64,000 bases of DNA from Aspidiotus rigidus (taxonomy: Eukaryota > Arthropoda > Insecta > Hemiptera > Diaspididae), in assembly GCA_035079385.1 (NCBI GenBank), contig JAVHKY010000053.1, forward strand, positions 3,720,001 to 3,784,000, given 5' to 3'. Position 1 is the stretch's first letter, and the number at the start of each line of letters is the position of its first letter. Under the pieces are notes generated by a model, which saw only the letters and a program-made list of their open reading frames with translations, was not told where the DNA came from and made no database searches. Positions 6,701-62,718 of the stretch are shown here, piece after piece. The translations under genes were made by a program, and so were the position numbers.

Positions 6701-9700
6701 TTGCGCGTTTAAATAAAGATCACTGAAAAAACTTGCTAAAACTATCGCGTCAAAAATTTTAAAAAGACAATGCACGGCGAAATAACGGACAAAATTCAAT
6801 TTCGCTTCCTTAAAATCTTCGCGTTCAACTTCGTAACATATTGACGTAAGTATGGAAGTATATCGGTATAACAACGCAGTAGGCTCGCGACATTATTAAA
6901 AGAAATTGTATTTTACTGCGCTTAAAATGCGACGAAACACATCTACCAAGAAAAAAGACTCGCAACGTAATAATAATAATACATAAAATTTGTTGGCACT
7001 TGTTACTTATACGAAGACAAAACATGAAGGAGACAAATCGCGTAAGAAGCGTAGTGGAAAAATTGACGCGTAACATGAATCATATGAAAGTAGAGAACAC
7101 GACTTTATCTTTGTTCTTAAATCCTACCGACAACGGCAAAGGAAGTTTTATCAACTAAATCATATGTGTAGGATCGAAAATAAAATCGAGAGACAGGAGG
7201 ATGACGTTACATCTGCCAACTAGGCTGATACTCCATCCTGTCTATGACGTCAGAAATGACTAAGACAATGATGAGTTTTGTAAAATCACGAAAAGGAAAT
7301 CACGCATTTCCGTGCGACAAAGATACCCCTACATCACCTGGATGATCGAGAAATAACTCGTCTTAATTTAGGACAAGTAATTCAAGCTTGTCACCCTTAC
7401 CCGCCTGCCATGAATTTTCATGTGAAAGCTAATTCAATCCAACCGTATTCAAATAATAATGATAATGAAAATTATGATAACAAAACATAAGAACAAAATA
7501 CATAATAGTAAGTACAAAAAATAACAGTAACAACTGAAAAAAATAATTGAAAAATAATAGTAATAGAAAAAAAAGAAAAAAAATAGGAAGTGTTTTTTAA
7601 AATAAAAATAATAATAGCAAAACTTGGAAGAAAATTAAGAAAAAAAAAAAAAAAAAAAAAGGGAAAAAAAGAGGGGTTAGAGCTAATTAAATATTGTACC
7701 TGTGGCCTGATATCTCTCAAAAGTCATAATTTTTCCACGCCCTTTCTCCCGTATTTGCAGGTCCAAAGTCGAAATTTTTTGATACGTTTGAGTAGCCTTG
7801 CCACTCGCAGATGAAGTATATTTTTGCACTGAAAATCTCTCTGATCACGTCACGAATTACCCACCCTGTGACCTAGCCTAATATATGCTAATACTAGGAC
7901 TAGGGGAACTGAGTTTGCTTGAAAGAGATGTTATCTGCTATGGTGCGAGTCATTTTTACTGAGTTTGCTTACCTTATTTGCTTATATGTGACCCCGTCTA
8001 CAGAAACCCGGCTTAGTGTTCAATTACAATCAGGAGAAAAGGAATCTTCCTTCCTCGGTAAAAGATCCTTTCCTCCTGATCGATATTCAACGCTAAGCCG
8101 GGTTTCTGTAGACGGGGTCACATATACGGTCCAACCTGCAGAGTCTCAGTCAAGCTTTTGTGCTTATAGAAGCCCTATAGGCTATAAAATACATCTACTA
8201 GGGTACTTCGCTCTACATACATTTTACAGTAGGTCACATATTAGCTCGCAGCTCAAAATTTTATACAGGGAACCATTCTCATAGGGAGGAGGATTTTTAA
8301 TAAGTTTGGCATCCTGGGTGATCCAACTTTCGAATCATTTCTTTATGGCTTTCATCAGGCTGTCTGTATCGTCGAAAATTCGTCACAGATAGCTCAACGT
8401 TCTATCTTGTGTTGTAAGTCGGTAACCATGATTTGAGAAGTTTTCTCAAGATCTACTTCTTTTAGGTGTTTGCGTCACCAATCTCCTTTTCTGAACTCAG
8501 CCTAACTAATCGTGAATTCCTCTTCCTATCATACATAGCACATATTTTACAGAGTTCCCTTTTATCATATTCAAAATTTTTCCTAGTCAAATCCCCTTAA
8601 TGGTTGATTCCCCTTCTTCAGAAGGAACCTGTTCTATGGAGGAAAGACGGTCCTTTTGAAAACTTTGACATCCCGCCGTCCGGCAAAAACTGACCTACCT
8701 TAATACAGGAACTTTTAAGCCATTTTATATGATAGAAGAGAGACTCAGGAAAATTTAGTCTCTTTGGTGCCTACCCTAATTTCGAATTTAATTATCAAAA
8801 CTAATTCGACCCACAGAACAGGTTTCCGTGTTCCTCATATAACCTCTTGCAAAAAGCTGTCGTTTTAAAAAGAAAACTTGTTGTATGGGGCGGGGTCTGC
8901 TTGAAATTATTGGCATCTCGCCGTCCGCCGTGCCGTCCGGCAATGTCCAACCCCATTAAAAGTTGGACTTGGAAAAATTTCGAATATCGAGCCACCGATG
9001 CGAAATGTGCAGGGGAAGAAGATGAAATTTTTAAAACAAATGATCAGGAGAGACGTTTTTTACTCAGTGACGTAAAATACCCAATTATTCTGACCGTTTC
9101 TTTTGGACATTCGCTTTTTTTTGCCCTGTCTCCTCTATAATAATAGGGAACTTGGAAAATTTCAACCATTAAAGAAGTTGGGCTCGATAAAAGTTTGAGT
9201 GTGGATATATACCTTGTTATGACAGGGGGGTTTTGCAAGAATTCTGACTTTCGAGCTATTGTATTATAGGACGGAATTTGGGAAAATTTTGACTTTCAGC
9301 CATAGAAATGATAGGAGGAGGACTGGAAAGAATTTCAAAGGCGGCATTGAAAAATTTTGAATATGAAACTGTACGTATGACACAGGGGAGACTTAGAAGA
9401 CTTTTGACTTTCGAGCTTTATATGATAGGAGAAAAACTTGAAGAAATTTCGACTCTTGGGCCATGTACATGATAAGAGGAGACTCAGAAACTGACCGAAT
9501 CTAAAAGAGGAATTGAACATAAAAAAATTTCTACGTTTAAGTTATTTACGAATATGAAACTTGTCTCGATGTTTGAAATTTTCGGGATACCAATTTCAAC
9601 AAGGAACTTGTTTCATCAAGGGGGGCGGGAAAAAGTCCGCCGTCCAGCTGGCCGGCAACCTCAAAGTCGTTTAGAGGTCGTTTTTCCGAGTCACCCTTCT

Positions 9701-15689: not shown

Positions 15690-17400
15690 GCTATTGTAAC
15701 AATGCATTTATAAGGTTCCTCCTACCCTCAATCTTTTCATAGGTTATCAGCTGCAATATTTGGTACATTGGTCCTCTTGTGACGTGTCCAAAATAATCAA
15801 CCTTTCTTTTCCTAAGCCAGTCAACAAGTATTCTCTCCGTTTTGGCCTTTTCCAGAACTTTTTTATTTGGTGTCTTGGTGGTCCATGAGATTTCGAGCAT
15901 TCTCCTATGCAACCACATTTCCGTAGCCTCAAAACGCTCCACTTGCCGTTTGTTCAGTGTGGCTGCCTCTATGGTGTATAATAAAATGGGCTATACGCTG
16001 TCTCACATTCAGGCTCAGAGTTCTATCGCACAGCAATGCCCCCATTTTCTTGAAAGCCGTTCGTGCTTGTCAGCATCTAATAGTTTTCTAGGTACCTGAA
16101 CTCCACCTTTTCGCCATTCCGCCAGTGTTGGCCTGGTATTCACTAACTACCATCCATTTTGTTTTCCTCACATTGATATTTTAGTTGTATCCTTTTCCAG
16201 TGGAGTTCAGGTGATCCAGCAAGTACTGTAGGTTCTGTAGGTCATCTGTCCGGATTACAGCATCGTCAGCGTACTTGTCTTGTTACAATAAATCTTCCTG
16301 ATTCCTTACGGGGAGTCGATAATTGATTCCTTGAATACTTGCTCCGTACACAGGCCTGCCGCATACCCTGCTGAATTTTAAAGTCCACGTGGTCTTGATT
16401 TGTCTCTAAGATTGGCTCGGCTTCTTCATTCCTATAAAAGTTACTGATGACTTGTAGGTCATTTCCATCAATTGCGATTCTCTCTAGAAGTTTTATTTAT
16501 TTTTTCGTTTTGGACATTATCGAAAGCCTTCTCATAATCTATAAAGCAATTATGAAGATGTTGTTGTTCATTCCCCTACTTCTATGTAGTAGGTCATTGA
16601 TTGCTGCAATAGCTTCTCTTGTTCCAACACAGGGAAGGAATCCCAATTGCGTATCTGATAGTTCCGCCTCGCATTTTGTTCGTATTCGGTGGTGAATAAT
16701 TTTCAAGAAGAGCTTCAATAAGTGGCTTATCTGACTGATGGTACGGTGGTCCCCACAGTCATAAATGACGATTTCAGCCATTCTTTTGGAATTCCTTCCG
16801 AATTATAGATCCGATTGAAAAGTCCGGTTAGGTGTTTGATATTATTTTCGTTCAAGAGCCGAATTATATCTCCCGGAATCTTATCTGGGCTCGTGGGTTT
16901 CCCGCACTTGATAAATTTGACAACCTCGGGTTCAAGGATTGCGGGGCGTTCCAGGGGCGGGTCGAGATTGGGGCTGCCTGGTCTTAGCTTCCAGACTTAT
17001 TCCCTGTCTTCATTTGCGTTGGTTATCTAGTAGTCTAGAAGACTTGTGTCTGAAACCTACACCAGTAACTGCTTCGATCTGTTTGTGCATGCGGAAGGAG
17101 CACTCTGCCAGAGCCTCGATTTCCTGACATTGTTCCTCCATCCAACCCACTCTTACCTTCCCGGATCGCCTTCTTTATTTCCTTGTTCAGTTTGCGGTAA
17201 TCCACCTGGTTTCTATTCGTATACTAGATCCGTCTTCTATCCATAAGATCAAGAATTTCTTCTGTCATCCATTCCTTTTTTTTGACATTACCTTTCTTCA
17301 GATCATTTTGGCAAATGCATAATATCACTTGGTTTAGATCCGGTACTGTCCTGCCCCAGGTTCTGCTTTTAAGGCGGCAGAAACTTGTCTTGACTCAATA
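15690..17400 (-). mobile_element. broken LINE, reverse-transcriptase region
   Basis: Reading the minus strand recovers an ordered but frame-broken non-LTR reverse transcriptase. KEWMTEEILDLMD lies near 17240-17285. An RT core at 16539-16781 includes HRTISQISHLLKLFLKIIHHRI, DTQLGFLPCVGTREAIAAIN. The catalytic YADDAVI is at about 16253-16273. The C-terminal region at 15691-15942 contains RRMLEISWTTKT and VDYFGHVTRG. Stops and frameshifts separate these blocks, so the copy is dead. The clade was not resolved, and the outer limits are approximate. Confidence 0.8.
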
Positions 17401-24889: not shown

Positions 24890-25145
24890 TTTGTATGTTG
24901 AAAAAGTGGGTTTTACATAGAAAAATAAGGCTGTCGCATGAGTGGCACAGAATTGAAAATGAGTCTGGCGTACAGAAAAATGAGGGTGGCACATGAGTGG
25001 CATAGAGATGAAAATAGGTCTATTGCATAGAAAAATGAGACTGGTGCATACAAAAAAATGAGGCTGTCGCATGAGTGGCGCAGAGTTGAAAATGGCTCTG
25101 GCGCATAGAAAAATGATGGTGGCGCAGGGGTGGCGCAGAATGAAT
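24890..25145. repeat. tandem repeat, about 56-bp unit, 4-5 copies
   Basis: The unit contains 'gcatagaaaaatgaggctg', 'tcgcatgagtggcgcaga' and 'gttgaaaatg'. Copies start near 24902, 24962, 25022-25048 and 25093. The minus-strand open frames here simply translate this repeat. Confidence 0.55.
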
Positions 25146-26579
25146 ATCTATACTGATGGTGCTTTTTCCGAGCAACAGTAACCTACCAATTCGGAGGTGA
25201 GGGTAATCGACTGGCTTCGCAATGACAGTTTCAAGCGTTTTATTGATGTGAGATGTGAGGGCGGAGCCAGCCTGTGGATAAAATAATAAGTGGCCACAAT
25301 GTGCTGAACGATAAACCATGGATCGTGAGATCGGTGGTAATACGTTTGCGATGAATATTGAAGGAATACTTATTGTGCCAAATAGTGATCATAAGATCAT
25401 CAGAGAAATTGAGCATCTTCCTATACCTAGGTAAATGTCAATAGTAATGTCCTGTCGTTCAGGCAGTTCGTCAAAATGGGTGTTGGGAAAATGGCCGTCG
25501 ACAAAACGGATCGGGAATTTGTCCGATCACGCGCGCAGGAAATTACTTGAAATTCACTCAGAATGTGATAAATAGAAGCAATATATTAAAAATATTTTGG
25601 ACCACAGCATATCGCTATACAAAAGATACAACTCGTCGGATTTGCTGTAGGTACATTATTCGAAACCGTCCAATCTTTTTTTTTTTATTACATCCAACCG
25701 AAAAAAAAAATAGAAAAAATATGTACATATATAAATATGGAAAAAAAAAGCGACAACAATGATACTCTGATATAGCGATCCGTTGTGAGGACTGGAGCCG
25801 AGTTTGAGTTCATGTAGTAAGGGAGTATGATTTAAACGCTCTTTAAAAATTATAAAGAGTACAGTTATAAAATATATAAAAAAAAAGTTGGAAAAAGGAT
25901 GGCTATTGGGCCTTACCTTGAAGGAAAAATGGAAAAATTGATTCTAAATGTTGGGAAAGGAGGGGTAGGTCAGAAATAAATTTGAAAATGTATAAGAACA
26001 TCGAAAGGTTTTCAGATGACAGGAGTTCGCCGACTCTGAGAGGAGTAGAGATTCGGAATAATTTAAAACTTTTTAGGTGAGCGGGGAGTCGATTGTGTCC
26101 AAAACGAAGACGGCTGAATTACCAAACTTGACCCTTGTAGTTGAGGAGCAACTCGGTATCAACGAGATGCTTCTTCACAGAATTTGTGATTAGTGCCACA
26201 CTGAGGAAAAAACAACCATTTTTCTGAAAAATTTGGTAATATCACCTGAACCATATGCCTTCAATTTCATTGAACAAATGTTGCAATATTACCCTTGTAA
26301 TCATCAGCAAATTTTACGTTGTATCTACATAAGTAATCGACGAAGAAAAACGTATCAACGAGGATAATAAAATTTACGCCGCTTGCATGATAATATTCTT
26401 TATGACAAAGCTTCTTTAACGGGATTATAATTTTCAAGATAGGAGCGCATCTATTGCAACACAGTGTTTAAGATAATTTACTAGTAATCCTAAATCATCA
26501 TTACGGATCATGAGGAATGCCCTTTACAATGAGAATGTCGCACGAACCGTAAATTTTCCAAGAGAGATTAGAATCCGAG

Positions 26580-26613
26580 TATAAAAGCTCACACTCTCGT
26601 GCTAATCGGCAGT
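26580..26613 (+). promoter_or_regulatory. core promoter of the giant Cys-rich gene
   Basis: TATAAAAG lies at 26580-26587. An initiator-like GCAGTT has its A at 26611, 31 nt from the first T of the TATA box, the canonical spacing. The ATG at 26638 would leave a very short 5' UTR of about 27 nt. The strong TATA box and short leader suggest high, tissue-restricted expression. The spacing is observed; the expression level is inferred. Confidence 0.65.
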
Positions 26614-26637
26614 TTAACTTTGGATCTTTGATTCATC

Positions 26638-29600
26638 ATGAATTTACCGTACAGCTTCTTGATTTGTCTTTTCGCTCTTTCTTTTGTGGCTGTGCCCTCC
26701 GTCGGACGCAGTTTGCCAAGCGAAGAATCATGCGAGCCATGTAAAGATTCTTGCGAATCATGTGAGCCATCTTGTGCACCATGTGAAGAATCATGTGAGT
26801 CTTGCGCCACCACCACTACTACCACTTGTACTACAACCACTGAGCCATGTCAAGTTTCCTGTGAGGCATGTGTGGAATCCTGTGAGCCATGTGTAGAATC
26901 TTGCGATTCATGTGAACCGTCATGCAAGCCATGTGAAGAAACATGTGAGTCCTGCGCCACCACCACTACTACTACTTGTACTACAACCACTGAGCCATGT
27001 TCCTGTGAGCCCTGTGAAGACTCCTGTGAGCCATGTGTAGAATCTTGTGATTCATGTGCACCATCATGTGAACCATGTGAGGAAACATGTGAGTCCTGCG
27101 CCACGACCACTACTACTACTTGTACTACAACCACTGAGCCATGTGAAGTTTCTTGTGAGGCCTGTGTGGAATCCTGCGAGCCATGTGTAGAATCTTGTGA
27201 TTCATGTGCACCATCATGTGAACCATGTGAGGAAACATGTGAAGAAACATGTGAGTCCTGCGCCACCACCACTACTACTACTTGTACTACAACCACTGAG
27301 CCATGTTCCTGCGAGCCCTGTGAAGCCACCTGTGCGCCATGTGACGATACCTGTGCGCCATGTGAAGACTCCTGTGGGCCATGCGTAGAATCTTGTGATT
27401 CATGTGCACCATCATGTGAACCATGTGAGGAAACATGTGAGTCCTGCGCCACGACCACTACTACTACTTGTACTACAACCACTGAGCCATGTGAAGTTTC
27501 TTGTGAGGCCTGTGTGGAATCCTGCGAGCCATGTGTAGAATCTTGTGATTCATGTGCACCATCATGTGAACCATGTGAGGAAACATGTGAAGAAACATGT
27601 GAGTCCTGCGCCACCACCACTACTACTACTTGTACTACAACCACTGAGCCATGTTCCTGCGAGCCCTGTGAAGCCACCTGTGCGCCATGTGACGACACCT
27701 GTGCGCCATGTGAAGACTCCTGTGGGCCATGCGTAGAATCTTGTGATTCATGTGCACCATCATGTGAACCATGTGAGGAAACATGTGAAGAAACATGTGA
27801 GTCCTGCGCCACCACTACTACTACTTGTACTACAACAACTGAGCCATGTTCCTGTGAGCCCTGTGAAGACACCTGTGCGCCATGTGAAGACTCCTGTGAG
27901 CCATGTGTAGAATCTTGTGATTCATGTGCACCATCATGTGAACCATGTGAGGAAACATGTGAAGAAACATGTGAGTCCTGCGCCACCACCACTACTACTA
28001 CTTGTACTACAACCACTGAGCCATGTTCCTGTGAGCCCTGTGAAGACTCCTGTGAGCCATGTGTAGAATCTTGTGATTCATGTGCACCATCATGTGAACC
28101 ATGTGAGGAAACATGTGAGTCCTGCGCCACGACCACTACTACTACTTGTACTACAACCACTGAGCCATGTGAAGTTTCTTGTGAGGCCTGTGTGGAATCC
28201 TGCGAGCCATGTGTAGAATCTTGTGATTCATGTGCACCATCATGTGAACCATGTGAGGAAACATGTGAAGAAACATGTGAGTCCTGCGCCACCACCACTA
28301 CTACTACTTGTACTACAACCACTGAGCCATGTTCCTGCGAGCCCTGTGAAGACACCTGTGCGCCATGTGAAGACTCCTGTGAGCCATGTGTAGAATCTTG
28401 TGATTCATGTGCACCATCATGTGAACCATGTGAGGAAACATGTGAAGAAACATGTGAGTCCTGCGCCACCACCACTACTACTACTTGTACTACAACCACT
28501 GAGCCATGTTCCTGTGAGCCCTGTGAAGACACCTGTGCGCCATGTGAAGACGCCTGTGAGCCATGTGTAGAATCTTGTGATTCATGTGCACCATCATGTG
28601 AACCATGTGAGGAAAAATGTGAAGAAACATGTGAGTCTTGCGCCACCACCACTACTACTACTTGTACTACAACCACTGAGCCATGTTCCTGTGAGCCCTG
28701 TGAAGACTCCTGCGAGCCCTGTGACGACACCTGTGCGCCATGTGAAGACTCCTGTGAGCCATGTGTAGAATCTTGTGATTCATGTGCACCATCATGTGAA
28801 CCATGTGAGGAAACATGTGAGTCCTGCGCCACCACCACTACTACTACTTGTACTACAACCACTGAGCCATGTTCCTGCGAGCCCTGTGAAGACACCTGTG
28901 CGCCATGTGAAGACTCCTGTGAGCCATGTGTAGAATCTTGTGATTCATGTGCACCATCATGTGAACCATGTGAGGAAACATGTGAAGAAACATGTGAGTC
29001 CTGCGCCACCACCACTACTACTACTTGTACTACAACCACTGAGCCATGTTCCTGTGAGCCCTGTGAAGACTCCTGCGAGCCCTGTGAAGACATCTGTGCG
29101 TCATGTGAAGACTCCTGTGAGCCATGTGTAGAATCTTGTGATTCATGTGCACCATCATGTGAACCATGTGAGGAAACATGTGAAGAAACATGTGAGTCCT
29201 GCGCCACCACCACTACTACTACTTGTACTACAACCACTGAGCCATGTTCCTGTGAGCCCTGTGAAGACACCTGTGCGCCATGTGAAGACTCCTGTGAGCC
29301 ATGTGTAGAATCTTGTGATTCATGTGCACCATCATGTGAACCATGTGAGGAAACATGTGAAGAAACATGTGAGTCCTGCGCCACCACCACTACTACTACT
29401 TGTACTACAACCACTGAGCCATGTTCCTGTGAGCCCTGTGAAGACTCCTGCGAGCCCTGTGAAGACTCCTGCGAGCCCTGTGAAGACATCTGTGCGTCAT
29501 GTGAAGACTCCTGTGAGCCATGTGTAGAATCTTGTGATTCATGTGCACCATCATGTGAACCATGTGAGGAAACATGTGAAGAAACATGTGAGTCCTGCGC

Positions 29601-32600
29601 CACCACCACTACTACTACTTGTACTACAACCACTGAGCCATGTTCCTGTGAGCCCTGTGAAGACTCCTGTGAGCCATGTGTAGAATCTTGTGATTCATGT
29701 GCACCATCATGTGAACCATGTGAGGAAACATGTGAGTCCTGCGCCACGACCACTACTACTACTTGTACTGCAACCACTGACCCATGTGAAGTTTCTTGTG
29801 AGGCCTGTGTGGAATCCTGCGAGCCATGTGTAGAATCTTGTGATTCATGTGCACCATCATGTGAACCATGTGAGGAAACATGTGAAGAAACATGTGAGTC
29901 CTGCGCCACCACCACTACTACTACTTGTACTACAACCACTGAGCCATGTTCCTGTGAGCCCTGTGAAGACTCCTGCGAGCCCTGTGACGACACCTGTGCG
30001 CCATGTGAAGACTCCTGTGAGCCATGTGTAGAATCTTGTGATTCGTGTGCACCATCATGTGAATCATGTGAGGAAACATGTGAGTCCTGCGCCACGACCA
30101 CTACTACTACTTGTACTACAACCACTGAGCCATGTGAAGTTTCTTGTGAGGCCTGTGTGGAATCCTGCGAGCCATGTGTAGAATCTTGTGATTCATGTGC
30201 ACCATCATGTGAACCATGTGAGGAAACATGTGAAGAAACATGTGAGTCCTGCTCCACCACCACTACTACTACTTGTACTACAACCACTGAGCCATGTTCC
30301 TGCGAGCCCTGTGAAGACACCTGTGCGCCATGTGAAGACTCCTGTGAGCCATGTGTAGAATCTTGTGATTCATATGCACCATCATGTGAACCATGTGAGG
30401 AAACATGTGAAGAAACATGTGAGTCCTGCGCCACCACCACTACTACTACTTGTACTACAACCACTGAGCCATGTTCCTGTGAGCCCTGTGAAGACACCTG
30501 TGCGCCATGTGAAGACGCCTGTGAGCCATGTGTAGAATCTTGTGATTCATGTGCACCATCATGTGAACCATGTGAGGAAAAATGTGAAGAAACATGTGAG
30601 TCTTGCGCCACCACCACTACTACTACTTGTACTACAACCACTGAGCCATGTTCCTGTGAGCCCTGTGAAGACACCTGTGCGCCATGTGAAGACGCCTGTG
30701 AGCCATGTGTAGAATCTTGTGATTCATGTGCACCATCATGTGAACCATGTGAGGAAAAATGTGAAGAAACATGTGAGTCTTGCGCCACCACCACTACTAC
30801 TACTTGTACTACAACCACTGAGCCATGTTCCTGTGAGCCCTGTGAAGACTCCTGCGAGCCCTGTGACGACACCTGTGCGCCATGTGAAGACTCCTGTGAG
30901 CCATGTGTAGAATCTTGTGATTCATGTGCACCATCATGTGAACCATGTGAGGAAACATGTGAGTCCTGCGCCACCACCACTACTACTACTTGTACTACAA
31001 CCACTGAGCCATGTTCCTGCGAGCCCTGTGAAGACACCTGTGCGCCATGTGAAGACTCCTGTGAGCCATGTGTAGAATCTTGTGATTCATGTGCACCATC
31101 ATGTGAACCATGTGAGGAAACATGTGAAGAAACATGTGAGTCCTGCGCCACCACCACTACTACTACTTGTACTACAACCACTGAGCCATGTTCCTGTGAG
31201 CCCTGTGAAGACTCCTGCGAGCCCTGTGAAGACACCTGTGCGTCATGTGAAGACTCCTGTGAGCCATGTGTAGAATCTTGTGATTCATGTGCACCATCAT
31301 GTGAACCATGTGAGGAAACATGTGAAGAAACATGTGAGTCCTGCGCCACCACCACTACTACTACTTGTACTACAACCACTGAGCCATGTTCCTGTGAGCC
31401 CTGTGAAGACTCCTGTGAGCCATGTGTAGAATCTTGTGATTCATGTGCACCATCATGTGAACCATGTGAGGAAACATGTGAGTCCTGCGCCACCACCACT
31501 ACTACTACTTGTACTACAACCACTGAGCCATGTTCCTGTGAGCCCTGTGAAGACTCCTGCGAGCCCTGTGACGACACCTGTGCGCCATGTGAAGACTCCT
31601 GTGAGCCATGTGTAGAATCTTGTGATTCGTGTGCACCATCATGTGAAACATGTGAGGAAACATGTGAGTCCTGCGCCACGACCACTACTACTACTTGTAC
31701 TACAACCACTGAGCCATGTGAAGTTTCTTGTGAGGCCTGTGTGGAATCCTGCGAGCCATGTGTAGAATCTTGTGATTCATGTGCACCATCATGTGAACCA
31801 TGTGAGGAAACATGTGAAGAAACATGTGAGTCCTGCGCCACCACCACTACTACTACTTGTACTACAACCACTGAGCCATGTTCCTGTGAGCCCTGTGAAG
31901 ACTCCTGTGAGCCATGTGTAGAATCTTGTGATTCATGTGCACCATCATGTGAACCATGTGAGGAAACATGTGAGTCCTGCGCCACCACCACTACTACTAC
32001 TTGTACTACAACCACTGAGCCATGTTCCTGCGAGCCCTGTGAAGCCACCTGTGCGCCATGTGACGATACCTGTGCGCCATGTGAAGACTCCTGTGGGCCA
32101 TGCGTAGAATCTTGTGATTCATGTGCACCATCATGTGAACCATGTGAGGAAACATGTGAAGAAACATGTGAGTCCTGCGCCACCACTACTACTACTTGTA
32201 CTACAACAACTGAGCCATGTTCCTGTGAGCCCTGTGAAGACACCTGTGCGCCATGTGAAGACTCCTGTGAGCCATGTGTAGAATCTTGTGATTCATGTGC
32301 ACCATCATGTGAACCATGTGAGGAAACATGTGAAGAAACATGTGAGTCCTGCGCCACCACCACTACTACTACTTGTACTACAACCACTGAGCCATGTTCC
32401 TGTGAGCCCTGTGAAGACTCCTGCGAGCCCTGTGACGACACCTGTGCGCCATGTGAAGACTCCTGTGAGCCATGTGTAGAATCTTGTGATTCGTGTGCAC
32501 CATCATGTGAAACATGTGAGGAAACATGTGAGTCCTGCGCCACGACCACTACTACTACTTGTACTACAACCACTGAGCCATGTGAAGTTTCTTGTGAGGC

Positions 32601-33912
32601 CTGTGTGGAATCCTGCGAGCCATGTGTAGAATCTTGTGATTCATGTGCACCATCATGTGAACCATGTGAGGAAAAATGTGAAGAAACATGTGAGTCTTGC
32701 GCCACCACCACTACTACTACTTGTACTACAACCACTGAGCCATGTTCCTGTCAGCCCTGTGAAGACTCCTGCGAGCCCTGTGACGACACCTGTGCGCCAT
32801 GTGAAGACTCCTGTGAGCCATGTGTAGAATCTTGTGATTCATGTGCACCATTATGTGAACCATGTGAGGAAACATGTGAGTCCTGCGCCACCACCACTAC
32901 TACTACTTGTACTACAACAACTGAGCCATGTTCCTGTGAGCCCTGTGAAGACACCTGTGCGCCATGTGAAGACTCCTGTGAGCCATGTGAAGACTCCTGT
33001 GAGCCATGTGTAGAATCTTGTGATTCATGTGCACCATCATGTGAACCATGTGAGGAAACATGTCAAGAAACATGTGAGTCCTGCGCCACCACTACTACTA
33101 CTTGTACTACAACAACTGAGCCATGTTCCTGTGAGCCCTGTGAAGACACCTGTGCGCCATGTGAAGACTCCTGTGAGCCATGTGTAGAATCTTGTGATTC
33201 ATGTGCACCACCATGTGAACCATGTGAGGAAACATGTGAAGAAACATGTGAGTCCTGCGCCACCACCACTACTACTACTTGTACTACAACCACTGAGCCA
33301 TGTTCCTGTGAGCCCTGTGAAGACTCCTGCGAGCCCTGTGACGACACCTGTGCGCCATGTGAAGACTCCTGTGAGCCATGTGTAGAATCTTGTGATTCGT
33401 GTGCACCATCATGTGAAACATGTGAGGAAACATGTGAAGAAACATGTGAGTCCTGCGCCACCACCACTACTACTACTTGTACTACAACCACTGAGCCATG
33501 TGAAGTTTCTTGTGAGGCCTGTGTGGAATCCTGCGAGCCATGTGTAGAATCTTGTGATTCATGTGCACCATCATGTGAACCATGTGAGGAAACATGTGAA
33601 GAAACATGTGAGTCCTGCGCCACCCCTACTACTACTACTTGTACTACAACCACTGAGCCATGTTCCTGTGAGCCCTGTGAAGACACCTGTGCGCCATGTG
33701 AAGACTCCTGTGAGCCATGTGTAGAATCTTGTGATTCATGTGCACCATCATGTGAGGAAACATGTGAGTCTTGCGCCACCACCACTACTACTACTTGTAC
33801 TACATCCACTGACCCATGTGAAGATTCTTGCGATTCATGTAAACCATGTGAAGAAACATGTGATTCCAACCCTACCATCACTACTACTACATCTACTACA
33901 ATATCCACTTAG
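26638..33912 (+). CDS. giant secreted Cys/Thr/Glu-rich tandem-repeat protein, 2,424 aa
   Basis: A single uninterrupted exon of 2,424 codons from ATG to TAG. Residues 1 to about 24 (MNLPYSFLICLFALSFVAVP) form a clear signal peptide. The mature protein is 41 tandem units of about 48-73 residues. Each unit is a run of C-x2-C-x3-C motifs (CEPCEDSC, CAPSCEPC, CEETC) closed by a Thr block (CATTTTTTC, TTTTEPC). Cysteine is about a quarter of residues, with Thr and Glu/Asp the other main classes. Basic and aromatic residues are nearly absent, so the protein is strongly acidic. The Thr blocks could be O-glycosylated, and the cysteines could form dense disulfides or bind metal. It ends in a degenerate unit and a Thr/Ser tail. 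I do not recognise a named family. Plausible roles are an extracellular structural material such as a glandular secretion, sheath, silk or egg coat. It sits next to two genes for smaller secreted Cys-rich proteins. Translation in other frames gives long shadow ORFs that should not be counted. Confidence 0.88.
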   Translation: MNLPYSFLICLFALSFVAVPSVGRSLPSEESCEPCKDSCESCEPSCAPCEESCESCATTTTTTCTTTTEPCQVSCEACVESCEPCVESCDSCEPSCKPCEETCESCATTTTTTCTTTTEPCSCEPCEDSCEPCVESCDSCAPSCEPCEETCESCATTTTTTCTTTTEPCEVSCEACVESCEPCVESCDSCAPSCEPCEETCEETCESCATTTTTTCTTTTEPCSCEPCEATCAPCDDTCAPCEDSCGPCVESCDSCAPSCEPCEETCESCATTTTTTCTTTTEPCEVSCEACVESCEPCVESCDSCAPSCEPCEETCEETCESCATTTTTTCTTTTEPCSCEPCEATCAPCDDTCAPCEDSCGPCVESCDSCAPSCEPCEETCEETCESCATTTTTCTTTTEPCSCEPCEDTCAPCEDSCEPCVESCDSCAPSCEPCEETCEETCESCATTTTTTCTTTTEPCSCEPCEDSCEPCVESCDSCAPSCEPCEETCESCATTTTTTCTTTTEPCEVSCEACVESCEPCVESCDSCAPSCEPCEETCEETCESCATTTTTTCTTTTEPCSCEPCEDTCAPCEDSCEPCVESCDSCAPSCEPCEETCEETCESCATTTTTTCTTTTEPCSCEPCEDTCAPCEDACEPCVESCDSCAPSCEPCEEKCEETCESCATTTTTTCTTTTEPCSCEPCEDSCEPCDDTCAPCEDSCEPCVESCDSCAPSCEPCEETCESCATTTTTTCTTTTEPCSCEPCEDTCAPCEDSCEPCVESCDSCAPSCEPCEETCEETCESCATTTTTTCTTTTEPCSCEPCEDSCEPCEDICASCEDSCEPCVESCDSCAPSCEPCEETCEETCESCATTTTTTCTTTTEPCSCEPCEDTCAPCEDSCEPCVESCDSCAPSCEPCEETCEETCESCATTTTTTCTTTTEPCSCEPCEDSCEPCEDSCEPCEDICASCEDSCEPCVESCDSCAPSCEPCEETCEETCESCATTTTTTCTTTTEPCSCEPCEDSCEPCVESCDSCAPSCEPCEETCESCATTTTTTCTATTDPCEVSCEACVESCEPCVESCDSCAPSCEPCEETCEETCESCATTTTTTCTTTTEPCSCEPCEDSCEPCDDTCAPCEDSCEPCVESCDSCAPSCESCEETCESCATTTTTTCTTTTEPCEVSCEACVESCEPCVESCDSCAPSCEPCEETCEETCESCSTTTTTTCTTTTEPCSCEPCEDTCAPCEDSCEPCVESCDSYAPSCEPCEETCEETCESCATTTTTTCTTTTEPCSCEPCEDTCAPCEDACEPCVESCDSCAPSCEPCEEKCEETCESCATTTTTTCTTTTEPCSCEPCEDTCAPCEDACEPCVESCDSCAPSCEPCEEKCEETCESCATTTTTTCTTTTEPCSCEPCEDSCEPCDDTCAPCEDSCEPCVESCDSCAPSCEPCEETCESCATTTTTTCTTTTEPCSCEPCEDTCAPCEDSCEPCVESCDSCAPSCEPCEETCEETCESCATTTTTTCTTTTEPCSCEPCEDSCEPCEDTCASCEDSCEPCVESCDSCAPSCEPCEETCEETCESCATTTTTTCTTTTEPCSCEPCEDSCEPCVESCDSCAPSCEPCEETCESCATTTTTTCTTTTEPCSCEPCEDSCEPCDDTCAPCEDSCEPCVESCDSCAPSCETCEETCESCATTTTTTCTTTTEPCEVSCEACVESCEPCVESCDSCAPSCEPCEETCEETCESCATTTTTTCTTTTEPCSCEPCEDSCEPCVESCDSCAPSCEPCEETCESCATTTTTTCTTTTEPCSCEPCEATCAPCDDTCAPCEDSCGPCVESCDSCAPSCEPCEETCEETCESCATTTTTCTTTTEPCSCEPCEDTCAPCEDSCEPCVESCDSCAPSCEPCEETCEETCESCATTTTTTCTTTTEPCSCEPCEDSCEPCDDTCAPCEDSCEPCVESCDSCAPSCETCEETCESCATTTTTTCTTTTEPCEVSCEACVESCEPCVESCDSCAPSCEPCEEKCEETCESCATTTTTTCTTTTEPCSCQPCEDSCEPCDDTCAPCEDSCEPCVESCDSCAPLCEPCEETCESCATTTTTTCTTTTEPCSCEPCEDTCAPCEDSCEPCEDSCEPCVESCDSCAPSCEPCEETCQETCESCATTTTTCTTTTEPCSCEPCEDTCAPCEDSCEPCVESCDSCAPPCEPCEETCEETCESCATTTTTTCTTTTEPCSCEPCEDSCEPCDDTCAPCEDSCEPCVESCDSCAPSCETCEETCEETCESCATTTTTTCTTTTEPCEVSCEACVESCEPCVESCDSCAPSCEPCEETCEETCESCATPTTTTCTTTTEPCSCEPCEDTCAPCEDSCEPCVESCDSCAPSCEETCESCATTTTTTCTTSTDPCEDSCDSCKPCEETCDSNPTITTTTSTTIST
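26776..33819 (+). repeat. coding minisatellite, 41 units of about 144-219 bp
   Basis: Unit ends fall at each 'actgagccatgt', for example 26850, 27000, 27144, 27306, 27492, 27654, 28509, 28686, 30474, 30651, 30828, 33663 and 33819. Two leader types exist. One opens SCEPCE and the other EVSCEACVESC. Optional modules (CAPCDDTC, a second CEET, EDICAS) make units differ by multiples of 3 nt, so the frame is kept. Units ending at 28686, 30651 and 30828 look identical over 177 bp, showing recent copying. Confidence 0.9.
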
Positions 33913-34010
33913 ATTGGTGTAGAATCCTTCGAGCCGTGTTGTGAGTAGTGTGAGTCTGGCATCACCTCTTGCACTACAAGAATATGCGTACCATCATAGG
34001 AAGAATTTTT
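33913..34010 (+). pseudogene. decayed coding repeat downstream of the stop
   Basis: In the same frame after the TAG, the sequence still reads VESFEPCCE, stop, CESGITSCTT, CVPS, stop. This is a worn copy of the repeat unit, so the coding array once extended further right and was shortened by the present stop. Confidence 0.65.
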
Positions 34011-34247: not shown

Positions 34248-34253
34248 ATTAAA
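34248..34253 (+). terminator. possible poly(A) signal of the giant gene
   Basis: ATTAAA lies about 336 nt after the stop. I saw no AATAAA closer. This is a weak, position-only assignment. Confidence 0.25.
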
Positions 34254-37301: not shown

Positions 37302-37396
37302 AATTACAACAAATTTATGCAATGTATTAGGGTGTATTCAAGTGAACAAAATTCTGTCATGTGTTAGAAAGTTTCTTGACCACAATTTTCGTAAGT

Positions 37397-40300
37397 TCAG
37401 TAGCATTCATCATCACGTGAACAATGTGTCCTATTTCTCGGACAACCGAGGAGAGGGTTGTCTGCACAAGGACCCGCGCAAGCTGAACAAGGGCAATTTT
37501 CATTCGAGAGTGAAGATGGAACTGTGATTTGAAAATCTGATAGTCCTAAAACCAGTGCATTACCTGCAGTATTCACATAAAGTTGACCTGAAAACCCATA
37601 GCCTATATTTTATAAAATACAGTATAATACTTATATTTAAAATAAAATTTTTTTAAAAATGGTAACCTTGTCCGCAGAATATGGGAAGGCTCCCTAGTTG
37701 AGTTTCATTCTGGAAAATATCGGATAAGAAATTATGTAGGCCAGATCAAGCGACTTACGCAAAAGCACACAATTGTAAAACTTACACCTAGAATATTGAA
37801 TTTTATGCCGCAGAAAACAATTGCCAAACACCTAGTCGGACTAGAACTTGATACGCAGATACCACCTGTATAGGTAATTTGCGTAGATACCAGAATCAAA
37901 AACAAGAAGTAAATGTTTTTTGGTGATGCACGACAACACACCTGTTCCAGCAAGAATTGGAGTTGTTGTGGCTGAGGATGACATCTGGTATTCCGGCGAC
38001 TGACAGGTCTTAGTGTTGCACCTGTTTAGAAAAATATTGCCGCAAGTTTGATTACACACTGTGCACTCACAGAAGCCGGATTGTTTGTCTTGTTGCGATG
38101 CTTTTATCTTGTCTACCTTCAAGTTCAGTATTAAATTCCGAGATGTTGCATCAAATGAGAGTTCAGCACTTCCATTGGCTGAAACATTTTTCACGGTAAA
38201 TCGAGATGAATTACTGCATATTCAAACCTAAATGCCGGAACACCGTATGGATCAACTATTTTGTACTATGAGTGCGGGGGATCTGTTAGGAAATATACTC
38301 AAATTATAGCTCGAGAGTCGACATTTTAACAAGTCCCCCTTCTATCATATATAGTTCGGAGGTCGAAATTTTAACAGGGAACCTGTTTTATGGGAGCTTT
38401 TTGAGAAATTTGCCGTGCGCCGTCCAGCAAAAAACTTAGAAAAACGACGGCTTCCTTAACGAAGTTAAACGAGGAACGCAACGAACCTGTTTTATGAGTC
38501 AAATGGGATTTGGTATTGAAAATTCAAGGAGGCCTAGACCTAGATAAAGCTAGTGTAAAGAAGGCCTAGACCTACTATTGACCTAGTATAATATAGTTTC
38601 AGAGTCTAAATTTTTCAGGGAATCTCTAGCTATATATGATAGCTTGAGAGTCGAAAATTTTCAAAGTCCCCCTCCTATCATATATGGCTCGAGAGTCGAA
38701 ATTTTTCTAAGTCCCTCTCCTATCACATATGGCGCGAGAGTGGAATTTTTTCCAAGTCCCCCCTTCTATCATCTATAGCTCGAGAGTCGAAATTTTTTCT
38801 AAGTCCCCCTCTTATCATATATGGCTCGAGAGTCGAAATTTTTCCAAGTCCCCCTCCTATCATGTATAGGTTGAAAGTCGAAATTATTCCAAGTCCCCCT
38901 CCTATCATACATAGCTTGCAAGTCGAAGTCCCCCTCCCATCATATATAGCTTGAGAGTCGAAATTTTTCCAAGTCCCTCTCCTATGGGTCGAAAGTCAAT
39001 ATTTTTCCAAGTCCCCCTCCTGTCATATACAGGTTGAAAAACGAAATTTTTTCAAGTCCTCCTCTTATCATATATAGCTTGAAAGTCGAAATTTTTCCAA
39101 GTCCCTCTCCTATCATATATGGCTCGAGAGTCGAAGTCCCCCTCCCATCAGATATAGCTTGAGAGTCGAAATTTTTCAAAGTCCCCCTCCCATCATATAT
39201 AGCTTGAGAGTCGAAATTTTTCCAAGTCCCCCTCCTATCATACATAGCTTGAAAGTCGAAGTCCCCCTCCCATCATATATAGCTCGAGAGTCGAAATTTT
39301 TCCAAGTCCCCCTCCTATCATACATAGCTTGAAAGTCGAAGTCCCCCTCCCATCATGTATAGCTCGAGAGTCGAAATTTTTCCAAGTCCCCCTCCTATCA
39401 TACATAGCTTGCAAGTCGAAGTCCCCCTCCCATCATATATAGCTTGAGAGTCGAAATTTTTCAAAGTCCCTCTCCTATCATATATGGCTCGAAAGTCAAT
39501 ATTTTTCCAAGTCCCCCTCCTGTCATATACAGGTTGAAAGTCGAAATTTTTTCAAGTCCTCCTCTTATCATATATAGCTTGAAAGTCGAAATTTTTCCAA
39601 GTCCCTCTCCTATCATATATGGCTCGAGAGTCGAAGTCCCCCTCCCATCAGATATAGCTTGAGAGTCGAAATTTTTCCAAGTCCCCCTCCTATCATATAT
39701 AGCTTGAAAGTCGAAGTCCCCCTCCCATCATATATAGCTCGAGAGTCGAAATTTTTCCAAGTCCCCCTCCTATCATATATAGCTTGAAAGTCGAAGTCCC
39801 CCTCCCATCATATATAGCTCGAGAGTCGAAATTTTTCCAAGTCCCCCTCCTATCATACATAGCTTGAAAGTCCAAGTCCCCCTCCCATCATATATAGCTT
39901 GAGAGTCAAAATTTTTCCAAGTCCCCCTCTTATCATATATGGCTCGAGAGTCGAAATTTTTTCTAAGTCCCTCTCCTATCATATATGGCTCGAGAGTCGA
40001 AAATTTTCCAAGTCCCCCTCCTATCATATATAGCTCGAGAGTCGACATTTTTCTAAGTCCCTCTCCTATCACATATGGCGCGAGAAAGGAATTTTTTCCA
40101 AGTCCCCCCTTCTATCATCTATAGCTCGAGAGTCTAAATTTTTTCCAAGTCCCTGTCCTATCATATATGGCTCGAGAGTCGAAGTCCCCCTCCCATCATA
40201 TATAGCTTGTGAGTCGCCACAAGCCCAGACTTTGGAGCTATATATAAAAGCAGGGTACTTAAAAAAAGTTATCTATGACGTCATCAGATTGTGACGTCAC

Positions 40301-41343
40301 AAGGCTGACCTATGATGTCTTGCTCGCCCCCAAGCTACATATCATAGGAGGGGAAGAAGTATACTAGCCCAGCGCTCGGTAGTGTGATTTTATCGCTGTT
40401 TTTGTACTTGCTTTTTTACTCTTCGTGAGTATACTTCTTCATAATGGACAACCGTAAAATTAAAAAACGAATTGATTCTATAGGAGGGGACTTGTAAAAC
40501 TTTCGAGGTCCGAGCTTTGCCGGCTAGCCGGACGGCGGACGTTTTTTCCAAAAAACCCTTCGATAAAATAGGTTCCCTATTAACAACAGGGGCGCGGGCA
40601 CGATTGTCAGTCAATCTCTTCTATAGAATTATCTAGGCCACCAATCTTCCCCTCTCTTAGGCAAGGTCGAGAGAAGGGGGACATAAGCAAAAATTAATGT
40701 TCTGGCTGAGCCAAATAGATAAAGATAAATTTAAAAAAAAATACAAACCTTGTACACACGGTAGTGCTTGACCTATAATAGGACTAATCAAGGGCGATAC
40801 TGCCAGCTAGAAAAATTAAACAACGAGTCAATAATTTTCTAAGCAAAATGAAAATGACGTTGTAGGATGGAAGTTCGTATCGGACATGAAGAAAAAGTTT
40901 TTGTAGTGCGAAAGATTTCCTAAACAATTGGTTGGTGGTAGATATCCATTTCTTATCATATCATTTAGGTTTACCTTTTCATTCTGGCGTCCTAAATAAA
41001 AACTAGGAAATTATTCTAGACACTTACGAGCGCGTAAACAGCCTGAGCCAAATTACACAATTTAAGGTAGATACAATTGTGATCTCGTGCCAGACAACCG
41101 GATGCTAGAAAAATTATCATTCACTGTAAGTTATATTTGAAAGATTTACGTATGAATAAGACTTAGGATTGAGACAATGCATCGCGTACTTGGCCAGCCT
41201 GCTGAAGATCCCCCTGACGATCCAATATTTGGTATTGTATCTATGATATCGGATAAGAATGAGAATGATGACGTTCCACCTAGCGATTTGACGGGCGATA
41301 CCATTCCAGCAAGGATTGCGATTGTGAATAGAATAATTTTCAT
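37397..41343 (-). CDS. secreted two-module Cys-rich protein, left paralogue, 7 exons, 279 aa
   Basis: Minus-strand exons are 41343-41190, 41104-41028, 40806-40749, 38178-37942, 37865-37786, 37709-37667 and 37587-37397. The spliced frame is open for 280 codons and ends in TGA. The first ATG at 41343 opens a signal peptide (MKIILFTIAILAGMVSPVKS). Two homologous modules follow. Module 1 has CLARDHNCIYLKLC, then PCVQ, then CECTVCNQTCGNIFLNRC. Module 2 has CVSSSSPTRCLAIVFC, then FCGQ, then CPCSACAGPCADNPLLGC. Each module is encoded by three exons with the same phase pattern (1-0, 0-1, 1). Intron 3 (2.6 kb) holds the minisatellite at 38.6-40.2 kb. The donor after exon 6 (gttacc) is weak. A tandem paralogue lies 1.2 kb to the right. 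I do not recognise the family; a secreted, disulfide-rich protein is the supported description. Confidence 0.75.
38290..38630. repeat. dispersed GCCGTCC-family repeat bordering the minisatellite
   Basis: Contains GTTCGGAGGTCGAAATTT, AACAGGGAACCTG, GCCGTCCAGCAAAAAACTT and CTTCCTTAACGAAGTTAAAC, in the same order and orientation logic as copies in the 8.6-10.6 kb cluster. It lies in intron 3 of the left Cys-rich gene. Confidence 0.5.
38631..40225. repeat. minisatellite, 45-bp and 35-bp units
   Basis: The long unit is about 45 bp and combines GAGAGTCGAAATTTTTCC, AAGTCCCCCTCC and TATCATATATAGCTT. The short 35-bp form lacks the 'atttttcca' segment. In 39.1-39.9 kb the two forms alternate to give an 80-bp higher-order repeat. 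I estimate 35-40 units. Open frames on both strands here (for example 38982-39245 minus) are products of the repeat. The array lies wholly in intron 3 of the left Cys-rich paralogue. Confidence 0.85.
40226..40620. repeat. dispersed repeat right of the minisatellite
   Basis: Carries two TGACGTCA palindromes (40276-40283, 40292-40299) and 'ggctagccggacggcggac'. A terminal 'aataggttccctattaa' block is shared with the other GCCGTCC-family copies. It may form one composite element with the array and the copy at 38290-38630. Confidence 0.45.
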
Positions 41344-42039: not shown

Positions 42040-42420
42040 GGAGCCACTCACGTGCAGTGTCAAGCTCGGAGGTCCGAATTTGTCTGAGTCTCTTTTCTAA
42101 CATACATAGCATGAAAGTCTAAATTTTTTCTAGTCCCTCTCCTGTCGAATATAGCCTCGAAGTCGAATTTTTTCCAAGTTCCTTTCGCATCATAATGAAG
42201 CTAGAAAGTCGAACTTTTTCAAGTCCTCCTCCTATAGCTCGGAGATCGAAAATTTTTCCTAGTCTCTTTCGCATCGGTTCCCTGTTAACTAAGTCCTTTT
42301 CCCATCATTCATATCTTGGAGATCGAAATTTTTACAATTCCCACGATACGCCGAACGGTACCGAACGGTACCGACCGGCGATCGACGCCCATCATTTCTC
42401 TCCGCGCCTTGACTTGATCA
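42040..42420. repeat. dispersed AAGTCC-family repeat between the paralogues
   Basis: Four or five diverged minisatellite-like units occur here ('agtccctctcctgtcgaatata', 'aagtcctcctcctatagctcgg'), followed by two 'ccgaacggta' tandem copies near 42350-42370. It is non-coding and intergenic. Confidence 0.5.
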
Positions 42421-42508: not shown

Positions 42509-45157
42509 TTACTCTTTGCAGTGTTGTTTTTCCGTAGTTGAGCAGCATTTTTCATCATGTGGGCAATGTTTCGTATTATTTGGACAACCGAGAAGAGAAT
42601 TGTTTGCACAAGGAGCCGCACAAACTGTACAAGTACAAATTCCATTCTCTGGGATTGTGATTTGAACATTGGATAATCCGAAAGTTGGACCGTTATTGTC
42701 AACACTGAGATTAAGTTCTCCTAAGGGAGAAAATATGGTATATGTACGAATGAAAAATAATTGGTGAAAAAAATTAAGTTTGTATTTTAGGCTTTGACTA
42801 TATACCTTTTATGGATTGAGTTTCCTCCATATACTGCAATGTTAAACGAGCGTGGAAAGCGTGCGGTGAGCAGAGCGGGTGAGTGCGCGGAAAAGTAACA
42901 GCTTCTCCTCCCTCCACAATCAACCGCGTCGCCTATTCCGAGTCCTCCGCATCTTATTTTCTTATCATATCTTTCCACGGGTAAACATCGTCTTGACTCA
43001 GTCCATAAGAGGTATATAGTCAAAGATTTTAGGATACATGACGAGTGTAGGAGTAAAGAAGCGAAGAACTTCCGTTCATGTATCTTAAAAAGCTATGTTT
43101 GTGACTTAGGAGTAAAGAGAATAATTTTTCGTAGGTGAGAACTGCAAACTTACATTGCGTGAAAATTGCTCACTTTACTTCTACAATGCATAAATTAATA
43201 CAAAAAAGAATCTTTCAAAATTTTCTAGTGCTTACCTTGTGCACAGAAAAATTGAAGGTTTCCCAGATCGATTTCATTCTGAAAGAGTAAGGTAAGAATG
43301 AGAAATTCTGAACAACAAGCAGTTCACAAGTACCCAATACTTACTCCTAAAACGACGATGTTTACGCCACAAAAAACTAAGGCATAACAATAAGTCTTTT
43401 TTGAAGATGCGAAGCAGACACCACCTAAATTCACACACATGTTAGAATTATTTTTATCGGGAGTAAAAGCTTTAGTAAATAAAAATATAATATTCGACTA
43501 ATTGCGATTAAAGAATTTTCGTCACTCGTTTTCCTTTTGAGATGATGAACTAATAAGGGACAAGTGACTTCACTCTAGATTACATATGGAATACGCCTTG
43601 AAATAGTACATCTACAGTGTCATAGCTCTCAGGTACGACATCATAACTTCCTTAATATCATTATCTGTCCAAATTTTGCCCCACTCTACCTAAACGTCAC
43701 TTTATTCGCTTAAATATGACAGTCTACCAATAAAATATTAAATTATAAATACACCGCAATATAAGTTACCTGATCCACCAAGAATTGGAATTGTAGTGGC
43801 AGGAGATAACATCTGGTATTTCTGCGAGGGACTTGTATTGGTGTTATTGCATCTATTCACAAAAACATCGCCGCATGGTTCGTTACACACTGTACAATCG
43901 CAGAAGCCTGTTTCATTATTTTCGGGGTATGCGCTCAAATTATCAATATTCACGTTAAATATTAGATTGCGTGTAGATGGATCATAAGCCAGTTGACCGC
44001 TGCCATTTGCTGAAAAGTTTTTAATGATAATCCAGTAAAGAAAACCAAAATCAAAATATAAACTTACAAATATTGGTTGTTTTAGAGAGCACCAGTAATT
44101 TGGTTGACGAGGTATTTTCAAAAGTTGCACGTAACTGTGAGTTTGGTGCATCGCTACGCACAACGCGGCCTTCTCACAACCATTTTGTGTTGGTAGAGTT
44201 GCACCAAAACTCGCAGTTGAAGATACAAGTCGCGAGTACATAAACAGCGGAGAGTTTGCGCCTGTGTCTATTGATTTATTGTAAAGTTGCCGCATAGGCA
44301 AGTGATATTATGTCACCTTTGAGTTACTAAATAGCAGCCTAGTAGCAAGTTTGCTTGATGAACCTCTGAATCTTAGAATTTCTGAATTAACTAGACAACC
44401 AATTTGACAAGTTTAGGAGCCATTTTATCAGAACCTACAAGGACTTAGTTGAGTTTGAAAGTATCACAATTGTTCTGAGCCCCAGCTTTGAGGTCACTCG
44501 GATCCCTCTTTGCTTTTCAATCGAAAGTTTTCCTAATCCCAAGTTCTTATAGTGACATTGTGGCCTGTTATCTTCAATAAACATACAAGAACGTCCGACC
44601 CTACCCCCGTTCCTTCGTCATCTAAATTTGAACAAAATATATATCTTTTTAATGCTCTGTATCTCTTGAAGGTAGCCACCCAATTTTATTTTACAATCAA
44701 AAAATTAAAATATTATAGGACGCGTGTACAGATTCTATACACATGCAGTCTATTTATAATAGTTAGAATCACAAACCTTGTGCACATGGTGAATCACTCA
44801 AAATAGGATTGATTAGAAACGTCGATGTTAGCTATAATTAAAAAATTGGAAAAGGATGAACTATTAGATTTGTATTACAAATTTTTGAAAAACAATGAAA
44901 AATTGAGGCTTCCTTAACAATGTTAAACGAAGAACGCATGGGACCTGAGTTCTATGGGTCGAATTTGTTTTAGTAATGAGGTTTTCAAGCCTATTGAGAA
45001 ACCACTACTAAAAAAACGCACTATCAATTCGACTTTTAGGGTAGTCTGGAACTGAATTGAGAAAACACCAATTTACACCAATTTTCCAAAATCTCCTTCT
45101 ATCATATATAAAGAAAGAAAGAAAGAAAGAAAGAGACTAAATGAATGAATAAATGAA

Positions 45158-49070: not shown

Positions 49071-62718
<13,648 letters not shown>

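What the first reader, a model, noticed from the sequence alone, without database searches (positions are those of the whole stretch)
26638..33912. A 2,424-residue secreted protein made of 41 Cys/Thr/Glu units, in one exon
The sequence shows a signal peptide followed by 41 in-frame units with about one cysteine every four residues (C-x2-C-x3-C) and a Thr block in each. It is a complete intronless gene with TATA box, initiator and stop. I know of no named family with this exact pattern. It resembles only in principle the repetitive Cys-bearing secretions of insects (Balbiani-ring-type silk, salivary sheath proteins, chorion). A disulfide-cross-linked or metal-binding extracellular material is inferred.
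Basis: partly seen in the sequence, partly recalled or inferred. Interest (0 to 1): 0.9.

Follow-up and report, generated by a model that had tools for sequence, protein, structure and literature searches.

The report
Giant cysteine-threonine repeat secretion gene
A probable arthropod gene encodes one giant, apparently secreted protein in which a quarter of the residues are cysteine, set in regular stripes between threonine blocks that could carry sugars; it looks like a self-curing glue or sheath material of a known broad kind but with an extreme design for which no match was found.

Summary
One ORF (26638-33912, +, 2,424 codons, no N) encodes a hydrophobic leader, 41 Thr-block units and a 30-residue tail, with 600 Cys after residue 24 (25.0%), Thr 21.0%, Glu 19.5%, pI 4.05. 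Cys spacing mostly alternates x2/x3; CxxCxxxC occurs 203 times. A TATA/CAGTT pair precedes the ATG.

Cys codons look constrained: 6 of 7 distinct variants at Cys columns are silent, against 9 of 40 elsewhere (Fisher P 0.0026; a split chosen after seeing the variants). The overall silent excess is weak (P 0.07) and a 1,961-aa antisense ORF exists, so the coding strand rests on leader, promoter and stop.

No relative was found. Closest published analogues: Drosophila glue proteins, above all intronless, orphan, heptad-repeat Sgs4, and insect mucins with cysteine in their repeats. It works like these; membership is not shown.

Most likely: a mucin-type extracellular glue, sheath or coat that sets by disulfide formation. 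Species, tissue and expression are unknown; the own-genome search did not complete.

The parts
26580..26586 (+). TATA box TATAAAA
   Evidence: with CAGTT 24 bases after TATAAA, the single such match in the window, 0.98 expected by chance
26610..26614 (+). initiator-like CAGTT, its A 31 bases after the first T of the TATA box; 5' leader would be about 27 nt
   Evidence: initiator consensus and spacing rule recalled
26638..33912 (+). single-ORF coding sequence, 2,424 codons, ATG to TAG
26638..26706 (+). probable signal peptide MNLPYSFLICLFALSFVAVPSVG
   Evidence: by eye; no predictor run
26719..33819 (+). array of 41 Cys-tract / Thr-block units, 43-73 residues each (the first counted without the leader)
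33820..33909 (+). diverged C-terminal tail EDSCDSCKPCEETCDSNPTITTTTSTTIST
33917..33964 (+). decayed repeat remnant after the stop codon (aligned part); in-frame reading goes on recognisably to about 33996 with a stop inside
   Evidence: local alignment score 34 against at most 28 in 500 dinucleotide shuffles and at most 28 in 222 other stretches of the window; plain blastn saw only 23 bases at E 0.13
34248..34253 (+). first polyadenylation-like hexamer ATTAAA after the stop; first AATAAA at 35260
26850..32735 (-). antisense ORF, 1,961 aa, GTG start, Ser/Val/His/Gln-rich; taken as a shadow, not as a gene

Best explanation
A single-exon gene for a giant secreted, mucin-type, thiol-cured structural material (a glue, sheath or coat). 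Steps: (1) it enters the secretory pathway by its leader (seen in the sequence, by eye). (2) Its 41 Thr blocks, which hold 404 of 505 Thr, are O-glycosylated and, with the strong negative charge (about -589 at pH 7 by calculation), keep the chain soluble and extended (inferred). (3) The Cys tracts between them (units carry 10 to 19 Cys, largely in CxxCxxx register) carry the cross-links: outside the cell or exposed to oxygen they form disulfides within and between chains and set the material (inferred, by analogy with Drosophila glue and aphid gel saliva). (4) The array grows, shrinks and homogenises by unequal exchange in whole modules (exact duplications up to 631 bp are shown; the exchange is inferred). 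Species and gland are not identified.
For: ORF with leader, well-placed TATA/CAGTT pair and stop. Composition Cys 25.0%, Thr 21.0%, Glu 19.5%, Ser+Thr 32.1%, pI 4.05, charge. Cys codons: 6 silent and 1 replacing distinct variants at Cys columns against 9 silent and 31 replacing elsewhere, Fisher P 0.0026, units 2-41, columns with at least 5 units; binomial P from 1.2e-5 to 1.3e-3 for an assumed silent share of 1/9 to 1/4. Cys periodicity: moment at 103 degrees 0.231 against 0.063 +/- 0.005 in 500 shuffles. Published analogues: Drosophila glue proteins, with disulfides formed by air oxidation proposed (PMC6352337 passages and section 11; PMC9409817 passages); aphid salivary sheath loses its structure in DTT (PMC3462764 passages).
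Against: No transcript, protein, tissue or species data. The overall silent excess among 41 single-step variants is 15 against 10.8 expected, P 0.07, and the antisense frame gives 15 of 41 as well, P 0.09 (units 1 and 42, six multi-step variants and columns with fewer than 10 units left out). The Cys/other split was made after seeing those variants, does not correct for transition bias, and third positions of the plus frame are also third positions of the antisense frame, so it does not by itself choose the strand. With tail unit 42 included it weakens to 6 of 10 silent, P 0.025. No homologue in the collections tried, so no cross-species conservation. Structure models are not confident (mean pLDDT 69.7 and 57.6).
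Confidence: 0.56

Rival explanations
1. A secreted metal-binding protein: the CxxC and CxxxC tracts bind Zn, Cd or Cu as a giant extracellular metallothionein-like sponge.
For: 25.0% Cys, 245 CxxC spacings and many acidic residues; a passage in PMC5156713 names a zinc-dependent Cys-rich aphid salivary protein.
Against: CxC, a usual metallothionein signature (recalled), is only 31 of 599 Cys spacings; the secretory route is oxidising (general knowledge); the Thr blocks have no evident metal role; no Pfam match at E 1.
Confidence: 0.12
2. An array that stays open by chance: minisatellite DNA grown in 21-bp and 12-bp quanta, perhaps from a small secreted gene, that makes no useful protein now.
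For: Homogenised array with exact duplications up to 631 bp and only 28 distinct DNA segments of 42; antisense ORF of 1,961 aa; overall silent excess not significant, and no stop among 41 variants is unsurprising, P 0.25. Both the tail just before the stop and the remnant just after it are diverged, as array edges often are without selection.
Against: Leader, promoter pair and ATG stand in the right order upstream of the array; Cys-codon pattern P 0.0026, post hoc.
Confidence: 0.17
3. An eggshell (chorion) or cuticle matrix protein cross-linked by disulfides, from ovary or epidermis rather than from a gland that secretes outward.
For: Silkmoth has a late high-cysteine class of chorion genes (PMC4639761 passages), so insects do use Cys-rich proteins in eggshell.
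Against: Those genes have a ~50-nt first exon, an intron and a 300-500-nt second exon; here one ORF of 7.3 kb. High-cysteine chorion proteins are glycine-rich (recalled); here Gly is 3 of 2,400. No chorion or chitin-binding Pfam match.
Confidence: 0.12

Closest known systems
Drosophila salivary glue protein Sgs4 (with Eig71Ee, Sgs1, Sgs3)
   Same: Signal peptide; [quoted passage not shown] seven-residue Cys repeats CxTEPPT; Sgs1/Sgs3 repeats such as PRCTTTTT and CAPTTTTTT; Thr-rich repeats prone to O-glycosylation and varying in number (PMC6352337).
   Different: Cys 25% here against 10% in Sgs4; two Cys per heptad in CxxCxxx register; Glu 19.5%; almost no Lys or Arg; no 120-residue C-terminal segment; 2,424 aa against 255-361 for Sgs4; no expression known.
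Insect mucins with cysteine inside the PTS repeats (Drosophila Muc/Mur set)
   Same: Ser+Thr above 25% and many repeats; some lack any conserved domain; three of the Drosophila set carry Cys in the repeats (PMC2515642 passages).
   Different: The passages seen describe no such Cys density or heptad register; no Pfam domain at all here.
Aphid structural sheath protein SHP (ACYPI009881)
   Same: Large Cys-rich salivary protein thought to set by disulfide formation; sheath disorganised by DTT; silencing of shp inhibits sheath formation (PMC3462764 and PMC5156713 passages).
   Different: Its sequence was not compared here; the passages seen describe no Cys/Thr tandem array.
Chironomus Balbiani-ring secretory proteins
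   Same: Long secreted proteins made of tandem repeats with Cys (Cys pattern recalled).
   Different: BR1, BR2 and BR6 genes have a repetitive core of about 35 kb (PMC4192438 passages); other repeat chemistry and no Thr blocks (both recalled).

Membership tests
Mucin-type protein (screen of PMC2515642) | Ser+Thr above 25%, over 300 aa, at least four ten-residue repeats, some Pro | tested here: met
   Ser+Thr 32.1%, 2,424 aa, 41 units, Pro 9.7%; their manual step was not repeated
Mucin-type protein (screen of PMC2515642) | PTS repeats occupy at least a third of the length (for the name Muc) | tested here: inconclusive
   41 Thr blocks of 15-16 residues are about 27% of the protein; whole units would count only if the Cys tracts, with their Ser and Pro, are included
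Mucin-type protein (screen of PMC2515642) | Dense O-glycosylation | not testable with these tools
   no glycosylation predictor and no protein
Drosophila Sgs4 glue family | Signal peptide and intronless gene | tested here: met
   leader by eye, single ORF, no transcript to prove the exon; feature from PMC6352337
Drosophila Sgs4 glue family | Repeat CxTEPPT, one Cys per seven residues, about 10% Cys | tested here: not met
   repeat here is CxxCxxx with 25.0% Cys; only the CTTTTEPC piece is somewhat alike
Drosophila Sgs4 glue family | Conserved C-terminal segment of about 120 aa | tested here: not met
   only a 30-residue, repeat-like tail; feature
Drosophila Sgs4 glue family | Larval salivary-gland expression; melanogaster subgroup | not testable with these tools
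   species and RNA unknown
Aphid sheath protein SHP | Sequence homology to ACYPI009881 | not tested
   its sequence was not fetched; it did not appear among the hits
Silkmoth high-cysteine chorion | Small two-exon gene in A/B pairs | tested here: not met
   single 7.3-kb ORF; no second copy in the window beyond the remnant; feature
Metallothionein | Pfam model match; frequent CxC (the latter recalled) | tested here: not met
   no Pfam match at E 1; CxC 31 of 599 spacings

The most novel reading that the evidence does not exclude
A new class of extracellular polymer, a 'thiol-stripe mucin': one chain alternates 41 O-glycosylated Thr spacers with Cys tracts whose i, i+3, i+7 register would put every Cys on one face if helical, giving some 600 thiols that zip chains together on oxidation and could be undone by reduction.
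Probability: 0.25. Interest if true: 0.75.

Novelty: new variant of a known kind. Interest (0 to 1): 0.52.

Why it matters
If expressed, it would be among the most thiol-dense giant secreted proteins known to me (recalled comparison), in a design that joins a mucin-like spacer and a regular Cys stripe in one repeat. That would be a template for redox-cured bioadhesives and a fresh case of how orphan secretion genes arise and expand by module exchange. It would also be a case where the Cys register is held while the spacers drift.

Tried and rejected
Homology. Pfam and NCBIfam at E 1 gave nothing. PDB gave only 3lmf at E 0.013, dismissed as composition without looking at its alignment. Protein database, residues 1-500, candidate lengths about 1,333-4,242: one hit of 6,089 candidates, C. 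briggsae CBG07907 at E 1.4e-11, a Thr/Cys/Glu/Pro repeat of quite another register; it is taken as compositional by eye, not by a test. First 491 residues, candidate lengths about 270-860: none at E 1 among the 7,985 candidates scored, which were those sharing most words. Lengths between about 860 and 1,333 and below 270 were not covered, and such searches serve low-complexity proteins poorly. Viral contigs, 341-aa query: no pattern match. Prokaryote contigs, 305-aa query: 11 pattern matches, 0 confirmed.

Structure. Single-sequence AlphaFold2 of 177 residues (about three units) gave helices at mean pLDDT 69.7, pTM 0.30; with 16 of the 23 distinct units listed as alignment it gave 57.6 and 0.37. 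A long helix is doubtful, as each Cys tract carries on average 4.6 Pro. No fold search was run on such models.

Selection. The overall silent-excess test was not significant and is reported as such.

Remnant after the stop. A first blastn step printed nothing; the alignment score with controls in the same call carries the claim.

Species. The third protein search, spent on a hand-spliced neighbour plus a piece of the ABCC first exon, returned one unnamed TMD0 protein among 4,035 candidates, so the taxon stays unknown.

Papers. Nine searches listed, in capped lists of titles and abstract starts, nothing that describes this protein. Passages were seen of PMC6352337, PMC9409817, PMC2515642, PMC3462764, PMC5156713, PMC4192438 and PMC4639761, and the whole of section 11 of PMC6352337; no paper was read whole.

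Full report
What is there. The plus strand holds one open frame from ATG at 26638 to TAG at 33912, 2,424 codons; the window has no N. After a hydrophobic leader (signal peptide by eye) comes an array of 41 Thr-block units and a 30-residue tail. Beyond residue 24 the composition is Cys 25.0%, Thr 21.0%, Glu 19.5%, Ser 11.1%, Pro 9.7%, Asp 5.2%, Ala 5.2%, with 7 Lys, no Arg and one aromatic residue, a Tyr. The chain without the leader is 250.6 kDa, pI 4.05.

Grammar of the units. A unit is a Cys tract followed by a Thr block, CATTTTTTCTTTTEPC in 34 of 41 cases. The tract is built of heptads CxxCxxx, with a four-residue CEET insert in some units and two forms of opening, SCEPC or EVSCEAC (QVSCEAC once). 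Of 599 spacings between successive Cys beyond residue 24, 245 have two residues between, 240 three, 45 six, 38 seven and 31 one; x2 and x3 mostly alternate. In the protein-level alignment, units 2-41 differ in length by seven, four or one residue and by the two-residue EV/QV opening; since units were aligned as protein, compensating frame shifts are not formally excluded. Units 1-41 carry 10 to 19 Cys, odd or even, so a closed set of disulfides within each unit is not required.

Is it a gene? For: leader, TATA box with CAGTT at the right distance and place, and stop. That pair is expected about once by chance in the whole window, so only its place counts. Cys codons: in units 2-41, distinct variants at Cys columns are 6 silent and 1 replacing, elsewhere 9 and 31 (P 0.0026); with units 1-41, 6 and 1 against 12 and 37 (P 0.0032); with the tail, 6 and 4 against 13 and 44 (P 0.025). 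This split was made after the variants had been seen and does not correct for transition bias. A repeat remnant follows the stop, with an in-frame stop and lost Cys; its alignment score 34 exceeds all of 500 shuffles and all of 222 other stretches, maximum 28 in both. The tail just before the stop is diverged as well, so the edge is a gradient and does not by itself show selection up to the stop.

Against or neutral: among 41 single-step variants (units 1 and 42, six multi-step variants and thin columns left out) 15 are silent against 10.8 expected (P 0.07); the antisense frame also shows 15 of 41 (P 0.09); no stop was seen, but none is expected in a quarter of simulations. The antisense strand has a 1,961-aa ORF whose third positions coincide with those of the plus frame, so strand choice rests on leader, promoter and stop. 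The array looks young: 28 distinct DNA segments of 42, and an exact 631-bp duplication at 28462 and 30604.

Relatives. None found: see Tried and rejected for each search and its limits. Low-complexity proteins are poorly served by such searches, and insect proteomes may be thin in the database, so this is absence of evidence at that sensitivity. The own-genome search did not complete (nine attempts), so paralogues elsewhere in the genome are unknown.

Mechanism. The best-supported reading is a mucin-type secreted material cured by disulfides. Thr blocks hold 404 of the 505 Thr and would be O-glycosylated (inferred). Cys tracts would cross-link (inferred). The Cys stripe has its strongest periodicity at 100-105 degrees per residue (0.231 at 103 degrees against 0.063 +/- 0.005 in 500 shuffles), with a second peak near 155 degrees. 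The first would be one face of an alpha-helix. AlphaFold2 does draw helices but without confidence, and about 4.6 Pro per tract speak against long helices. So the regular register is shown, the helix is not.

Comparison. Drosophila glue proteins share signal peptides, Thr-rich Cys-bearing repeats and fast change of repeat number; Sgs4 in particular is intronless, an orphan and built on seven-residue Cys repeats (PMC6352337). That paper and a review (PMC9409817) propose that the Cys oxidise in air to set the glue. Aphid gel saliva loses its sheath structure in DTT (PMC3462764). Three Drosophila mucins carry Cys in their repeats (PMC2515642). By that paper's screening numbers the present protein would pass as mucin-type (Ser+Thr 32.1%). 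It is not an Sgs4 member: repeat motif and C-terminus differ. It is not a chorion protein or a metallothionein by the features tested.

Surroundings. Exons of an MRP1-like ABCC gene lie downstream on the plus strand. Two copies of a multi-exon small secreted protein with CxCxxC motifs lie between on the minus strand; tblastn matches between them and the array are weak (E 0.19 or more in the lines shown) and fit shared Cys/Thr composition (output cut in part). No tRNA was found, and no Rfam family at the gathering threshold.

Verdict. Observation confirmed; a striking sequence, most likely a structural secretion of a known broad kind in an extreme variant without a match so far. Expression, species and chemistry remain untested.

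Noticed in passing
window about 37396-41343 and about 42509-44019, - strand: Two copies of a multi-exon small secreted protein with CxCTVC/CPCSAC motifs; 53% identity over the 88-aa exon; the first copy begins with MKIILFTIAILAGMVSPVKS, the first exons of the second were not found. Exon borders by eye; no database relative of this part.
   Followed up: partly
window 38630-40216: A 35/45/80-bp tandem satellite lies inside a presumed intron of that small secreted gene, with related stretches at 42063-42342 and, inverted, at 9218-9490.
   Followed up: partly
window 50202-62181, + strand: ABCC (MRP1-like) transporter gene: TMD0, transmembrane and NBD1 exons recognised; its end at about 62181 is by eye.
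   Followed up: partly
window 26850-32735, - strand: Antisense ORF of 1,961 aa through most of the array, Ser/Val/His/Gln-rich; a warning that openness of such arrays proves little.
   Followed up: partly
window 16539-16996 and 55508-56802, - strand: Open fragments that look like retrotransposon reverse transcriptase / RNase H pieces by eye; the one tested, 56287-56802, had no Pfam match.
   Followed up: no
window 24916-25147: Short 55/78-bp tandem repeat about 1.5 kb upstream of the gene.
   Followed up: no
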